A stretch of DNA of 64,000 nucleotides from a virus: IMG/VR virus record IMGVR_UViG_3300046004_000518, positions 46,478 to 110,477 of that record; one strand, written 5' to 3'. Within the stretch, counting starts at the first letter, position 1, and each line of letters begins with the position of its first letter. Made by a program: the position numbers and the translations under genes. Under the pieces are notes generated by a model. It was not told where the DNA came from. It saw only the letters and a list, made by a program, of their open reading frames with translations, and ran no database searches. Shown piece after piece: positions 37,387 to 64,000 of this stretch.

Positions 37387-39298
<1,912 letters not shown>

Positions 39299-41009: not shown

Positions 41010-41370
41010 TACTAGTTTTGATTACAAGGTATAGTTACCCCGTGGTGTTTGTTTCTTAGGCAAACGTTGCTGTTTTAGTAGCAGAACCGAAGCGGAAGCC
41101 ACGACCCATAGATACTTTTACAGCACCAGTTGTAGATGTTTTTGCATTTACAAGATTTTGTATTTTACGTGACCCCACGTGTTGAGTTGTTATCCTATCT
41201 CACGCTGTCGAAACCTGGTCAGGCCCATCAGAAGCATACTATCTCGCTAAAGACATAATCCTTACGGGACCTTAGTGACAATATACTTTTGGTGGACCTG
41301 GGCGGAATCGAACCGCCGTCCAACATGTATTACTTTACAACTTTGCCTTACGGCTACAACAATTTCTTTA
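41010..41370 (-). ncRNA. ssrA: Circularly permuted two-piece tmRNA (ssrA)
   Basis: On the minus strand the acceptor piece comes first: T arm GGCGG-TTCGATT-CCGCC, then CAGGTCC-A-CCA with CCA encoded (3' end at 41290). About 63 bases later the coding piece starts at 41226 with GGGCCTGACCAGGTTTCGAC, whose GGGCCTG pairs with CAGGTCC to form the acceptor stem. An ACGTG...CACGT hairpin fits pseudoknot 1. This 3'-half-before-5'-half order is the permuted form; the spacer (41227-41289) is presumably cut out. tmRNA with SmpB frees stalled ribosomes and tags the protein. Boundaries at 41370 and 41010 are approximate. cspA lies just upstream. Confidence 0.88.
41056..41145 (-). other. tmRNA tag reading frame (29 codons)
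   Basis: The frame in the coding piece starts at a GCA (41143-41145), 82 bases from the 5' end of that piece, close to the E. coli position of 90, with an A at -4. It runs 29 codons to TAA (41056-41058). The tag starts AKTSTTGAVK, has Lys/Arg at positions 2, 10, 15, 18 and 24, no acidic residue, and ends TATFA. It lacks the usual terminal Ala-Ala. The resume codon is inferred. Confidence 0.6.
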
Positions 41371-41381
41371 GTACTAGTGTA

Positions 41382-41585
41382 TTACACTGGTACAATATTC
41401 GAAGCTTGCTTGCCCTTAGGACCTTGTGTTACTTCAAACTTTACTGCTTGGTTTTCTGCTAGTGTTTTGAAACCTGTGCTCTCAATTGCTGAGAAGTGAG
41501 CAAATAAATCCTCACCTCCTGCGTCTGGAGTGATAAATCCAAAACCTTTTGAATCCGAAAACCATTTTACTTTACCTGTTGCCAT
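41382..41585 (-). CDS. cspA: CspA-family cold-shock protein
   Basis: The 67-residue protein is a complete cold-shock domain: [15 protein letters not shown] (RNP1) and [10 protein letters not shown] (RNP2), ending in a KGKQASNIV strand. Such proteins bind single-stranded RNA or DNA and melt structure. It lies just ahead of the tmRNA, behind a sigma-70 promoter, and the two are probably one transcript. Confidence 0.95.
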
Positions 41586-47712: not shown

Positions 47713-47744
47713 ATTTTGCTCCGTTTTGTTATTGTATGTGTAAC

Positions 47745-47773
47745 ATTATACAGTCATTTTACCAAAATGTCAA
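47745..47773 (-). promoter_or_regulatory. Consensus sigma-70 promoter
   Basis: TTGACA (47768-47773) and TATAAT (47745-47750), 17-base spacer, minus strand. Confidence 0.9.
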
Positions 47774-48066: not shown

Positions 48067-48098
48067 TTGTTCTTCCTTGTTAACAGTTTATGTATAGC

Positions 48099-48127
48099 AT
48101 TATACAGTCAATTTACCAAAATGTCAA
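48099..48127 (-). promoter_or_regulatory. Consensus sigma-70 promoter
   Basis: TTGACA (48122-48127) and TATAAT (48099-48104), 17-base spacer, minus strand. It lies back to back with the plus-strand gene at 48150. Confidence 0.9.
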
Positions 48128-59248: not shown

Positions 59249-60280
59249 TTAATTTTCAAGGCTTTTCCAGAACTCATACAACTTAAAACTGGCTAAGTTC
59301 TTGCCTTTTGCCTCTACCATTATATCAGCCCACTGCCAGTGCTGATGTGCCCATTCATTTACAGCAGTATTCCACATAAAGTCTGAATGTGCTCGCAGTT
59401 TGCTTTTCTTGTAGCCCTGTTCTAATAATAAATTATAATCAGGTTTTACCTCAACATCATGATCAACGAGATAATCTTCACGACTAATGCTATAATGTAC
59501 AACAGGACGGACGCCACGCCAAGCATCCAGAATGCGTTGGATACGCGAGTCCATAGCGTTGATATATTCCCCCTCACGAACAAAATGGTGATGGACATCG
59601 AGCACAATAGGAATACCATGATCGCTAAGAACAAGACAGTCGTCTAGGCCATGTTTCATTTCCTCATTTTCTATAGTTAAGGTATTACGTGCTTCGGGTG
59701 ATAACTTACCGTAGACGTCAATAATACCTTGTGCACCTCTACGACCTGCAATATGCACATTACACTTGAAGTCTTGGAATGTCCGACCATAGCCCATCCA
59801 ACGGATCATATCCGCATGGTATTCAAATTCGTCTATACTTCTTCGAACAATGTCATCATTATCACTCGCAAGTACTGTGAATTGACCTGGATGAAAAGAT
59901 AAGCGCACATCAAGCAAACGAGCAAGCTCACCCACCTTACTGAACGCCTGCTCGCAATAACTAACGACATCAGGCTTGCGCCAAAAATAACACCAATCAG
60001 ACTGAGTGTATACTGGTAGTATATCAGAGCTGATACGAACCATCCTAAGGTTGCCATTTAATGTTCCAATTCGTTCTATTAACTTACGTGTTGATTCTAT
60101 GTTACCTACCATTAGGTCCCATAGTTTTTGTTCGGCAACTTCCTTAGTCTGGCGATTAAGCCATGCTACTGTTGTACTTCCGGTATTATACTGTTTAGCA
60201 TCATCAAGAGGTTTGATCCCAAGAACTTGATCGGGGCGATCAATCCACTTACAAGCAAAGCCGATGCGTTTAGTATTCAT
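59249..60280 (-). CDS. uvdE: UV damage endonuclease (UvdE/UVDE family)
   Basis: The 343-residue protein starts MNTKRIGFACKWIDRPDQVL and has the TIM-barrel metal sites of UVDE: LSFHPGQFTV, FKCNVHIAG, LTIENEEMKH, VLDVHHHFV and HSDFMWN. The enzyme nicks 5' to UV photoproducts and begins an alternative excision repair. The ATG lies 6 bases past the promoter TATAAT, so the message may be leaderless. T4 itself uses a different enzyme (DenV). Confidence 0.9.
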   Translation of the reverse strand: MNTKRIGFACKWIDRPDQVLGIKPLDDAKQYNTGSTTVAWLNRQTKEVAEQKLWDLMVGNIESTRKLIERIGTLNGNLRMVRISSDILPVYTQSDWCYFWRKPDVVSYCEQAFSKVGELARLLDVRLSFHPGQFTVLASDNDDIVRRSIDEFEYHADMIRWMGYGRTFQDFKCNVHIAGRRGAQGIIDVYGKLSPEARNTLTIENEEMKHGLDDCLVLSDHGIPIVLDVHHHFVREGEYINAMDSRIQRILDAWRGVRPVVHYSISREDYLVDHDVEVKPDYNLLLEQGYKKSKLRAHSDFMWNTAVNEWAHQHWQWADIMVEAKGKNLASFKLYEFWKSLEN

Positions 60281-60286
60281 AATATT

Positions 60287-60315
60287 ATTATACAATTAAT
60301 TTATTAAATTGTCAA
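60287..60315 (-). promoter_or_regulatory. Consensus sigma-70 promoter of uvdE
   Basis: TTGACA (60310-60315) and TATAAT (60287-60292), 17-base spacer. The ATG of uvdE (60280) falls at the expected transcription start. Confidence 0.88.
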
Positions 60316-60638: not shown

Positions 60639-60672
60639 TTTGTGCTCCTGTGTTGTTAGTGTATGTATAGCA

Positions 60673-60701
60673 TTATACAGTCATTTAACCAAAAAGTCAA
60701 C
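60673..60701 (-). promoter_or_regulatory. Sigma-70 promoter
   Basis: TTGACT (60696-60701) and TATAAT (60673-60678), 17-base spacer, minus strand. A plus-strand late box follows 9 bases away. Confidence 0.88.
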
Positions 60702-60751: not shown

Positions 60752-61033
60752 ATGGGCGATATTTTCAAACTAATTGGCGATTTAGGCTTCCCCGTTGCAA
60801 TGGCATTAGCCGGCGGGTACTTTGTTTATCTTACAATTAAACTATTATTAGCTGGCGTACTCGGTGCAATTAAAGGTATGGCTGGTATCATCACTGCATT
60901 AGACAACAGAGTTAAAACAATGAATCACGATGTTATACGCATCGATACAGTGGTGTCAAACGCACTTGGTTTAAAACCAGACGTCGACCGTATTAGTCGT
61001 GCTGATGGTAAAAATGACGCTCGGAGAGATTAA
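60752..61033 (+). CDS. Small holin-like membrane protein (copy 1)
   Basis: The 93-residue protein has an N-terminal hydrophobic pair (residues 7-45), starting MGDIFKLIGDLGFPVAMALA, then a charged helix with VKTMNHDVIRIDTVVSNALG. This layout (one or two membrane segments, then a coiled tail) fits phage holins of the BhlA/YvlB-like type. It resembles the protein at 62001-62327 (GFPxxMA...L-DxxIRIxxxVN-xL). It starts a late plus-strand operon. Confidence 0.6.
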   Translation: MGDIFKLIGDLGFPVAMALAGGYFVYLTIKLLLAGVLGAIKGMAGIITALDNRVKTMNHDVIRIDTVVSNALGLKPDVDRISRADGKNDARRD

Positions 61034-61827
61034 TGACTACACCAATTAACATGCGCCCGTTTACAGAACAGGCGGCCTTATTTGCACACATCAGTGAAAT
61101 AGCATACTTAGATATACCAGAAGGTCCTGCTAAATTTGCTGAACTTGGATTTATCGCAGAACTAATAGACGTAAACGGCAGTCAAGCATACTGGTTGCAA
61201 AATGATACAGATTTGGTCATTGCTTGCCGTGGTACACAACCAACAGACTTTCGTGATATAGCCGCTGATTTAAAAGCTCGTCCGGTAAAAAGCTCACAAG
61301 GCATTAACTTTGTACACGATGGATTTAAATCTAGTGTAGATAACATATGGCCTGAACTAACAGCCAAGGCTAAGAAGTACGGTAAGAAACGCACTGTGTG
61401 GTGCACGGGTCATAGTTTAGGTGCGGCTATGGCTACTTTAGTTTCATTCAAACTACAACGTGCTGAAGATTTACCCAGCCCACAGGCCTTGTTTACTTAT
61501 GGCAGTCCGAAAGTAGGTAACAAAGACTACATCAAAGCCATTGAAGAAATTGGTCTATTACACTTCCGCTTTGTCAACAATGCAGATATCGTTACACGTG
61601 TTCCACCGTGGCCATATTTACACTTTGGTGGTATGTACTATATGAACCACTGGGGTAACTTACGTACACTTACCTGGACGCAATTAATACAGGACCGCTT
61701 ACGTGGTTTTTGGAAAGGTATTAAGAAAGGTGAAATTAACTTCTTTAGTAACCACAGCATCACACGTTATAAAGAAAACTTAGAGCGTTGGGCACGTGGT
61801 GAAGAACGCTCTCAAGATAAAATTTAA
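61033..61827 (+). CDS. Class 3 lipase-like hydrolase
   Basis: The 264-residue protein has the lipase elbow GHSLG (Ser128), a preceding RGTQPTDFRDI strand with the oxyanion turn, Asp in NNADIVTRVPP (near residue 183) and His in SNHSITRY (near 244). It is typical of fungal-type lipase class 3. Such an enzyme could attack membrane lipids or released substrates at lysis. There is no signal peptide. The start overlaps the holin-like stop (TAATG). Confidence 0.85.
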   Translation: MTTPINMRPFTEQAALFAHISEIAYLDIPEGPAKFAELGFIAELIDVNGSQAYWLQNDTDLVIACRGTQPTDFRDIAADLKARPVKSSQGINFVHDGFKSSVDNIWPELTAKAKKYGKKRTVWCTGHSLGAAMATLVSFKLQRAEDLPSPQALFTYGSPKVGNKDYIKAIEEIGLLHFRFVNNADIVTRVPPWPYLHFGGMYYMNHWGNLRTLTWTQLIQDRLRGFWKGIKKGEINFFSNHSITRYKENLERWARGEERSQDKI

Positions 61828-62000: not shown

Positions 62001-62327
62001 ATGGATGTAGTAGATTTAGTAAACAAATATGGCTTTCCCATTGTTATGGCAGTGGGCATGGGATTTATCATCAAATATGTGTGGGAATGGGCAACAAAAG
62101 AGGTGAAACCAGTCATAAATGATGCAAATACTGTGCTTATTGCCTTGATTGATCGCATACGTATGTTAGACAACGATTTGATACGGTTGAATCAAAAAGT
62201 AAACACTGTACTACACCTACGTGGCAAAACCATTGAGTTTGAACGTGTAGAAGCCGAAGCAGAAATTAATAAACACACATTAAAGAAATCAGAAGATGAT
62301 AAAGCCGCTAGTGGCGGCAGTGACTAA
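62001..62327 (+). CDS. Small holin-like membrane protein (copy 2)
   Basis: The 108-residue protein has a hydrophobic first part (residues 10-30, KYGFPIVMAVGMGFIIKYVW) and a charged, probably coiled tail (RIRMLDNDLIRLNQKVNTVL). It is a diverged copy of the protein at 60752. It is the last gene of the plus-strand operon and ends 4 bases before the carboxypeptidase stop on the other strand. Confidence 0.58.
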   Translation: MDVVDLVNKYGFPIVMAVGMGFIIKYVWEWATKEVKPVINDANTVLIALIDRIRMLDNDLIRLNQKVNTVLHLRGKTIEFERVEAEAEINKHTLKKSEDDKAASGGSD

Positions 62328-63115
62328 TCAACATTAATATCGCTGTTACTAACTGTTACAGCGATTTTTTGTGCTTCTGGGAAACGTGTACGAGTATTTT
62401 TACTACCCAATAATACAATTACACGTTGTCCTAATTCAGTATCGAGTAGCATAACCACACAACCGCCACTTTCATTTATATAACCTGTTTTACTAACACG
62501 CACATCATTGCTATTTCTAACCATCGGATTAGTGTTACCAAATTGCCACCAACGACGTTTAACTTTGATACTTACATTAGGTTTACCACTGGCTTCAGTA
62601 ATCTCCGTGTATTCATTTGCAGCTAAAACTAATTTGCCTAAGTCACGAGCATTACTAACATTGTTTGCATCTAGTCCTGTTGGGTCAGCAAATGTGGTAT
62701 TTGACATACCTAGCACAAACGCAATGTGATTCATCTCGGCAATACATCGTGCTACACCGCCTGGATAATTTGCGCCTAATGTATATGCGGCAAGGTTATC
62801 ACTCTTAACAATAGCAAGATCAATTAGTTCACCGCGAGTTAACTGTTTAACACTACGAGGTAATCGAGTGTGATATTTGTTAACTAATCGACGATCTAAT
62901 GTGATCATTTCATCCAAATTTTGGTTAGCATCCAGCACCACCATTACAGTCATTAGTTTAGTAATGCTGGCAATGGGCTGTACATGATCAGCATTCTTTT
63001 CTAGTATAACTTCGCCTGTGTTATCTGCTACTAAAAAACTTTTAGCAGTAATAGGTTTTGCTACTACTGCGGTGCAGAATAATAGCAGTAAGATAAAACT
63101 ACTTGCTCGTAGCAT
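62324..63115 (-). CDS. D-alanyl-D-alanine carboxypeptidase (peptidase S11)
   Basis: From the ATG at 63115 the protein has 263 residues with a signal peptide (MLRASSFILLLLFCTAVVA, cut before KPITA). The three S11 motifs are present: Ser50-x-x-Lys53 (SITK), Ser105-x-Asn (SDN) and Lys209-Thr-Gly. It trims peptidoglycan side chains in the periplasm. It lacks the C-terminal amphipathic anchor of DacA/DacC, so it may be soluble. It overlaps the cyclase gene end by 17 bases. Phage-encoded members are uncommon. Confidence 0.85.
   Translation of the reverse strand: MLRASSFILLLLFCTAVVAKPITAKSFLVADNTGEVILEKNADHVQPIASITKLMTVMVVLDANQNLDEMITLDRRLVNKYHTRLPRSVKQLTRGELIDLAIVKSDNLAAYTLGANYPGGVARCIAEMNHIAFVLGMSNTTFADPTGLDANNVSNARDLGKLVLAANEYTEITEASGKPNVSIKVKRRWWQFGNTNPMVRNSNDVRVSKTGYINESGGCVVMLLDTELGQRVIVLLGSKNTRTRFPEAQKIAVTVSNSDINVD
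62339..62371 (+). terminator. Rho-independent terminator of the plus-strand lysis operon
   Basis: ATCGCTGT and ACAGCGAT arms close an 11-base loop, followed by TTTTTT on the plus strand. It lies within the 3' end of the carboxypeptidase gene and ends the 60752-62327 transcript. Confidence 0.75.
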
Positions 63116-64000
63116 GGTACGTTCCGGACCAGTTAGCAGGAACACCTTGTTCCATGCGTTCAATCATTAGTTCATAGTAGTGTTTAATATCAACTTCATC
63201 ATTATTAACTATTTTATTAGCCCAGACCAATGCTTTACCCCAATTACCGCGAGTATATTCTTTACGATATTCTTCATGCATATAAAGATTAGTGCGACCA
63301 ACTGTATAGATATCTAACCCAATTGTCTTGCCTTTAACAGCAATGTTGTCTAGCCATACTACAGGGAATGCATCTTTACAGTATTCAGCAGTCTTAGGAC
63401 CAATGATTAGTAATACACCGTATGACTTAGTCTGTCCTTCTAACCTTGCCGCGGTACTTACGCTGTCACCTAACACGTCATAGCCAAACTTGCTTTTAGC
63501 ACCAATGTTACCAATTAAGGTTTCACCTGTGTTAACACCAGCACCCATACCAACTGGTGGACGACCACTAGCAACAAGTTCTACGTTAAAGGCCTCAATG
63601 GCTTTGATCATTTCCAATGCTGTTTGTACTGCGGTCTTGGCGTGATTAGCATCATCCAATGGAGCACCGTGTACGTGTAAACTAGCATCACCGATAAACT
63701 TGATTAAGGTACCATCATTCTTAAGCACAGGAATACTTAACGCTGTCATGTAATCGTTCATAATCTGTGTAAGGCCTTCTACATCATCACCAAACGATTC
63801 ACCTAATGTTGTAAACCCACGTAGGTCAGTCATAACAATTGAAAGTTCTTTACGTTCGCCACCTAACTTGATCAGCTCTGGATTCTTTTGTAGGCGTTCA
63901 ACAATAGTAGGGTTGACATAGCTACCAAACTGTTTCTTAATTTGTTGTTTCTGTAAGAACTCGCTAATAAACTTAACACCATAAGCGTGTAGCATAACCA
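63099..64000 (-). CDS. Class III adenylate/guanylate cyclase, C-terminal part (runs off window)
   Basis: About 300 residues are visible; the frame continues beyond 64000, so the N-terminus is missing. The first visible residues (hydrophobic, then QKQQIKKQFGSYVNPTIVER) look like the last membrane helix and linker of CHASE2-type cyclases. The catalytic domain follows: VMTDLRGFT and IKFIGDASLHVHG hold the metal aspartates; Lys and a YDVLGD Asp suggest ATP. The usual VNxAxR reads VSTAAR, so the transition-state Asn is Ser. It would make cAMP or a related signal at the membrane. Confidence 0.8.
   Translation of the reverse strand, partial: VMLHAYGVKFISEFLQKQQIKKQFGSYVNPTIVERLQKNPELIKLGGERKELSIVMTDLRGFTTLGESFGDDVEGLTQIMNDYMTALSIPVLKNDGTLIKFIGDASLHVHGAPLDDANHAKTAVQTALEMIKAIEAFNVELVASGRPPVGMGAGVNTGETLIGNIGAKSKFGYDVLGDSVSTAARLEGQTKSYGVLLIIGPKTAEYCKDAFPVVWLDNIAVKGKTIGLDIYTVGRTNLYMHEEYRKEYTRGNWGKALVWANKIVNNDEVDIKHYYELMIERMEQGVPANWSGTYHATSK

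What the first reader, a model, noticed from the sequence alone, without database searches (positions are those of the whole stretch)
63099..64000. Membrane class III nucleotidyl cyclase on a phage
Catalytic aspartates, the ATP-type Lys/Asp pair and the Arg are present, while the transition-state Asn is Ser (VSTAAR). The visible N-terminus looks like a membrane helix, as in CHASE2 cyclases. A phage that makes cAMP-like signal could reset host metabolism or answer an anti-phage cyclic nucleotide.
Basis: partly seen in the sequence, partly recalled or inferred. Interest (0 to 1): 0.72.

Follow-up and report, generated by a model that had tools for sequence, protein, structure and literature searches.

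The report
Phage membrane cyclase from curli module
The phage gene is a real, selection-maintained membrane sensor enzyme predicted to make the signal cyclic AMP; it belongs to an already reported phage gene set for curli surface fibres, so the find is ordinary in kind, with unusual details: an all-viral catalytic variant and repeated swapping of the catalytic domain.

Summary
Window 63099-64000 (minus) is the C-terminal 299 residues of a class III nucleotidyl cyclase cut by the contig end. A contig identical over 4,055 bases (L002) continues upstream in frame into CHASE2; full-length relatives are 670-700 aa, CHASE2 + transmembrane helices + cyclase. Metal Asps, Lys/Asp specificity pair and Arg are present; the transition-state Asn is Ser, as in 77 of 81 viral copies. 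dN/dS is 0.04-0.1, so it is not decaying.

It is not new in kind: phrog_35576 covers it, HTVC008M and Melnitz phages annotate homologues, and PMC9599517 (2022) reported phage cyclases with FecR in curli (type VIII secretion) clusters. Here csgG and FecR occur in 34 of 45 relatives' records; in the window's own clade the curli genes lie 9-20 kb upstream, separated by host-like genes. New details: a virus-only Asp/Ser catalytic clade, repeated catalytic-domain swaps under conserved sensors, FecR-cyclase 4-base overlaps, and a chromosomal csgF-csgG-curlin-FecR-cyclase operon in a Hyphomonas MAG. No phage record encodes a cyclic-nucleotide receptor. Best reading: an envelope/curli-coupled cAMP sensor; product, signal and target are unproven.

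The parts
63099..63998 (-). CHASE2-class III nucleotidyl cyclase, C-terminal 299 residues; 5' end missing (contig end)
   Evidence: Open frame to contig end; phrog_35576 2.9e-93
63951..63998 (-). End of last transmembrane helix and start of coiled linker (VMLHAYGVKFISEFLQ)
   Evidence: Alignment to full-length L008 and AF2 model helix 367-399; hydropathy
63327..63851 (-). Catalytic domain, PF00211 (residues 50-224 of the visible part)
   Evidence: fold matches CyaB 3r5g at TM 0.88, rmsd 1.5 A (on L008 model)
63825..63827 (-). Metal-binding Asp58 (VMTD)
63687..63701 (-). ATP-type Lys100 and metal-binding Asp104 (KFIGD)
63444..63479 (-). Specificity Asp174, Ser181 in place of transition-state Asn, Arg185 (DVLGDSVSTAAR)
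63102..63326 (-). C-terminal helical tail ending in W-x-G-T-Y-x-A-T-S-K, largely conserved in viral relatives
   Evidence: model helices 613-658
62324..63115 (-). Adjacent D-alanyl-D-alanine endopeptidase/carboxypeptidase (Peptidase S11); neighbour, overlaps the cyclase by 17 bases
   Evidence: PF00768 1.4e-41; kept downstream in L006

Best explanation
It is the catalytic half of a phage-encoded, membrane-anchored CHASE2 adenylate cyclase that works in one functional set with a phage curli (type VIII secretion) module: csgF, csgG, curlin-like proteins and a FecR-domain protein. Inferred mechanism: the extracytoplasmic CHASE2 domain, probably through the periplasmic FecR-domain protein, reads the state of the envelope or of curli export; the signal passes through the transmembrane helices and linker to a homodimeric catalytic domain that turns ATP into cAMP; cAMP then alters host physiology or infection timing. 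Shown: architecture, fold, catalytic residues, purifying selection, gene linkage in relatives. Inferred from families: topology, homodimer, ATP to cAMP. Guess: FecR as signal partner, the signal itself, the cAMP target. Sub-confidences: CHASE2 class III cyclase 0.98; active and makes cAMP 0.75; functionally coupled to FecR/curli 0.7; precise role 0.25.
For: PF00211 and phrog_35576; CHASE2 in full-length relatives; in-frame upstream in the 100%-identical contig L002; AF2 model pLDDT 88 with class III fold, 3r5g rmsd 1.5 A; all metal, specificity and Arg residues kept, 77 of 81 viral copies identical at the six sites; dN/dS 0.035-0.13 against the closer relatives, 0.19 against swapped L020; CsgG and FecR in 34 of 45 relatives' records by Pfam; same-strand FecR upstream in 34 of 35 loci and a 4-base FecR-cyclase overlap in five; curli order in Melnitz and HTVC008M; published FecR-CHASE2 cyclase clusters in Campylobacterota (PMC9239204) and CyaD1 with a neighbouring FecR gene in S. 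meliloti (PMC5498481); active K/D cyclase with Ala at the Asn site (PMC4215837).
Against: No biochemistry. The window's own record ends inside the gene, so its curli genes are not seen and are inferred from relatives. In the closest clade the curli genes lie 9-20 kb away, and in L066 they are inverted, so co-transcription is not universal. No PF00027 receptor in 45 phage records, and only 9 of 147 genomes of the family of a Pelagibacter MAG have one, so the cAMP target is unknown. Loss of the Asn lowers activity in the mammalian enzyme (Yan 1997, from my knowledge).
Confidence: 0.7

Rival explanations
1. Host-metabolism gene: the cyclase raises cAMP constitutively to reprogram host catabolism through the host's own CRP; linkage to curli is incidental.
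For: In the closest clade the cyclase sits beside host-like genes (porins, PstS, AhpC, PQQ methanol/ethanol dehydrogenase, cytochrome c) and 9-20 kb from curli.
Against: The large conserved CHASE2 sensor argues against constitutive output (removal of CHASE2 makes CyaD1 constitutive, PMC5498481); curli/FecR linkage recurs across marine isolates and distant contigs. Relatives infect SAR11, where CRP-like receptors are rare.
Confidence: 0.17
2. Counter-defence or defence: the cyclase makes a cyclic nucleotide that interferes with Pycsar-type immunity or acts as a superinfection defence.
For: Weak matches to PADLOC PycC models (9.6e-12 for the window protein; 9.8e-25 for HTVC008M), which share the class III catalytic domain.
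Against: PycC models hit only the shared catalytic domain; K/D is the ATP-type pair; no Pycsar effector was found or specifically sought next to it; annotated and family-scanned neighbours are curli and envelope genes.
Confidence: 0.05
3. Catalytically dead or strongly impaired cyclase used as a receptor or scaffold, because the transition-state Asn is Ser.
For: Asn is conserved in the clearly cellular relatives examined that align at the site (L090, L096-L105).
Against: Metal Asps, Lys and Arg are kept in all 81 viral copies; strong purifying selection; Ma1120 with Ala at this site is active and loses activity when Asn is put there (PMC4215837).
Confidence: 0.08

Closest known systems
Phage T8SS/curli-cluster adenylate cyclases (Pelagibacter phages, PMC9599517; HTVC008M YP_007517885; Melnitz QZI94833)
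   Same: CHASE2 + class III cyclase; csgF-csgG-curlin-FecR-curlin upstream; viral; Melnitz shares 49% identity and the Asp/Ser catalytic variant
   Different: The window's clade has 9-20 kb of host-like genes between curli and cyclase in relatives; HTVC008M has a different catalytic domain (Ser/Asn type)
FecR-linked CHASE2 adenylate cyclases of bacteria (Campylobacterota clusters, PMC9239204; S. meliloti CyaD1, PMC5498481)
   Same: Same domain order; FecR-domain protein encoded nearby
   Different: Cellular; Thr/Ser + Asn active site in the cellular relatives examined here; in Campylobacterota with a phosphodiesterase and TPR protein, not seen here
P. aeruginosa CyaB catalytic domain (3r5g)
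   Same: Same fold (rmsd 1.5 A), metal Asps, Lys, Arg
   Different: Different membrane sensor (MASE2, from my knowledge); Thr + Asn instead of Asp + Ser
M. avium Ma1120
   Same: K/D specificity pair and a non-Asn residue (Ala) at the transition-state site, yet active (PMC4215837)
   Different: Ala rather than Ser at that site; no CHASE2 or curli link is described in the passages read

Membership tests
Class III nucleotidyl cyclase | Guanylate_cyc catalytic domain and fold | tested here: met
   PF00211 2e-18; class III structures dominate the Foldseek hits
Class III nucleotidyl cyclase | Two metal Asps, substrate Lys + Asp/Thr, Arg | tested here: met
   D58, D104, K100, D174, R185
Class III nucleotidyl cyclase | Transition-state Asn (usual, not strictly required: Ma1120 is active with Ala, PMC4215837) | tested here: not met
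   Ser181; 77 of 81 viral copies have Ser
Class III nucleotidyl cyclase | Cyclase activity, cAMP product | not testable with these tools
   Needs purified protein
CHASE2 adenylate cyclase | N-terminal CHASE2 followed by transmembrane helices and cyclase | tested here: met
   In five full-length relatives by Pfam and in frame in L002, identical to the window over 4,055 bases; the window itself is cut
Phage curli/T8SS-associated cyclase (PMC9599517) | csgG and FecR on the same phage genome, cyclase downstream | tested here: inconclusive
   Met in 34 of 45 records incl. the closest clade; cannot be seen in the window's own record, which ends in the gene
Pycsar cyclase (PycC) | Specific PycC family match (beyond the shared catalytic domain) | tested here: not met
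   Only weak matches confined to the catalytic domain
Pycsar cyclase (PycC) | Adjacent PycTM/PycTIR effector gene | not tested
   Effector models were not run on the neighbours; neighbours identified are curli and envelope genes

The most novel reading that the evidence does not exclude
The virus-only Asp/Ser catalytic clade is a distinct cyclase lineage whose exchange under conserved CHASE2 sensors reflects a changed product or regulation, acting in hosts that have neither a class III cyclase nor a CRP-type receptor, hence through an undescribed cyclic-nucleotide target or as part of a phage-built curli signalling device.
Probability: 0.12. Interest if true: 0.75.

Novelty: new member of a known kind. 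Interest (0 to 1): 0.42.

Why it matters
Phages that install their own curli pore, FecR protein and membrane cyclase in aquatic bacteria are abundant (390 matching stretches in one scan) but their function is unknown. The full-length sequence, the fixed Ser variant, the sensor/catalytic swaps and a cellular operon of the same order give concrete, testable handles: does the phage cyclase respond to curli export, and what reads cAMP in a host without CRP?

Tried and rejected
Frameshift or pseudogene at the contig edge: rejected by L002 and dN/dS. Contig chimera or bacterial gene: rejected by L002/L003 overlap (100% over 4,055 and 6,895 bases), and by homologues in isolated phage genomes. Acinetobacter 'phage' MD-2021a hits: locus L084 is bacterial genes (mfd, isc operon), not phage evidence. 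Single-protein scan of genome contigs found nothing; the alignment scan found 23 loci, of which L089, L091 and L094 carry the small phrog_18771-like membrane proteins and/or lipase seen in the window and L095 similar small membrane proteins, so they look viral by my reading. Receptor search: none in phages. Megablast of the region against isolated phages: no match.

Full report
What is there. The window is the right end of a 110,477-base viral record, and the minus-strand frame 63998-63099 runs off that end. The visible 299 residues match Guanylate_cyc (2e-18) and the C-terminal part of phrog_35576, a 681-aa phage family (2.9e-93).

Upstream. The viral collection gave 390 relatives among 402 candidate stretches, of which 80 were kept. 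L002 is identical to the window over 4,055 bases and L003 over 6,895; L002 adds 866 bases upstream, in frame, encoding most of CHASE2. Complete relatives are about 670-700 aa and Pfam finds CHASE2 plus Guanylate_cyc in all five tested. Hydropathy and an AlphaFold2 model (pLDDT 88, pTM 0.61) give one N-terminal helix, the CHASE2 domain, three further membrane helices, a linker helix, the catalytic domain and a helical tail. The catalytic part superposes on solved class III cyclases (CyaB 3r5g, TM 0.88, 1.5 A). The protein was modelled as a monomer, so the dimer is from family knowledge.

Active site. Asp58/Asp104, Lys100, Asp174 and Arg185 are present and Ser181 replaces Asn. Among 81 viral loci 77 read D-K-D-D-S-R and four D-K-D-T-N-R. 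The clearly cellular relatives that align at the site (L090, L096-L105) have Thr or Ser at the specificity site and Asn. In the catalytic-domain tree the Asp/Ser sequences form one clade (100/100), including Melnitz and the contigs L089, L091, L094, which come from bacterial bins but carry small membrane proteins and/or a lipase like those next to the window's gene and look viral (my reading, not scanned by family). Long branches make the deeper placement unsure. Pairwise dN/dS with the closer relatives is 0.035-0.13: the protein is under strong constraint. Published Ma1120, K/D with Ala at the Asn site, is active (PMC4215837), so Ser does not imply inactivity.

Domain swaps. Sensor and catalytic trees disagree with high support. 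L020 is 97% identical to L008 in the N-terminal part but 70% in the catalytic part; L054 and L076 share their sensor clade with L015/L031 but their catalytic domain with L077; Melnitz and HTVC008M group together by sensor (100/100) but not by catalytic domain. At least three exchanges are implied. This was not found in the papers read.

Gene company. In Melnitz and HTVC008M the cyclase follows csgF, csgG, curlin, FecR-type and curlin-type genes. By Pfam, CsgG and FecR are each in 34 of 45 records; in most of the others little sequence is held upstream of the cyclase, and the window's record ends in the gene. Profiles built from these phages show FecR on the same strand upstream of the cyclase in 34 of 35 loci, overlapping by four bases in five; these profiles are not independent of the loci. 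In the clade nearest the window (L085-L088) curli genes lie roughly 9-20 kb upstream with a variable set of inserted genes: in L085 a porin, a PQQ methanol/ethanol-type dehydrogenase, PstS, a phosphate-selective porin, a metallophosphoesterase, AhpC and cytochrome c. Contig counts include near-duplicates and are not independent lineages.

Cellular counterpart. L090, on a 705-kb Hyphomonas MAG contig with ordinary bacterial neighbours, has csgF-csgG-curlin-FecR-CHASE2 cyclase with FecR and cyclase frames overlapping. [quoted passage not shown] this MAG locus is a candidate exception, subject to MAG error.

Receptors. PF00027 was found in none of 45 phage records (most are fragments). In the family of the genome holding L095, a Pelagibacter MAG by title, PF00027 occurs in 9 of 147 genomes and PF00211 in 3 of 147, one of them the viral-looking contig L095. 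Class I cyclases were not sought. If that family is typical of SAR11 hosts, relatives such as HTVC008M infect cells mostly without either part. The window's host is unknown; a betaproteobacterial-type permuted tmRNA in the window and the dehydrogenase in relatives suggest, but do not show, a methylotrophic betaproteobacterial-lineage host.

Interpretation. PMC9599517 already proposed that cyclase and FecR regulate phage curli, PMC7029224 'sibling capture' by phage curli, and PMC9004378 a lysis-timing pore. FecR and CHASE2 cyclases also cluster in Campylobacterota (PMC9239204) and S. meliloti (PMC5498481). The most economical reading is an imported cellular envelope-sensing cAMP system carried with curli genes. 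The defence/counter-defence idea is weak: PycC models match only the shared catalytic domain.

Verdict. The added value is the confirmed full architecture, the virus-only Asp/Ser clade, the swaps, the 4-base overlaps and the cellular operon.

Noticed in passing
L085:7619-9484 (relative G001, between curli genes and cyclase): Phage relative encodes a 621-aa PQQ-dependent methanol/ethanol-family dehydrogenase (TIGR03075, 613 bits), with PstS, two porins, AhpC and a cytochrome c nearby: an unusual host-like gene block.
   Followed up: partly
L090:2020-8043: Hyphomonas MAG (705-kb contig) with chromosomal csgF-csgG-curlin-FecR-CHASE2 cyclase operon, a cellular counterpart of the phage module.
   Followed up: partly
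window 41083-41384, minus: Permuted, betaproteobacterial-type tmRNA (RF01850 84.6 bits, RF04321 84.4 bits); Melnitz also carries a phage tmRNA.
   Followed up: no
window 47744-47773, 48098-48127, 60671-60700, minus: Three near-identical 30-base copies with TTGACA (TTGACT in one)-17-TATAAT, probable strong phage promoters; none expected by chance.
   Followed up: partly
window 60752-61033 and 62001-62327, plus: Two paralogous small membrane proteins (phrog_18771; one with a weak holin match) flank a class 3 lipase (61033-61827); similar proteins recur on L089, L091, L094.
   Followed up: no
L006:4625-4876: Small protein directly upstream of the cyclase matching RNA polymerase Rpb6/omega (PF01192, 6e-10).
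   Followed up: no
window 59249-60295 and 37387-39027, minus: Phage-encoded UvdE-type UV endonuclease (9.6e-39) and a GroEL chaperonin (phrog_5725, 9.6e-173).
   Followed up: no
L066:1787-7552: Curli genes and FecR lie downstream and inverted relative to the cyclase, the one exception to the common order.
   Followed up: no
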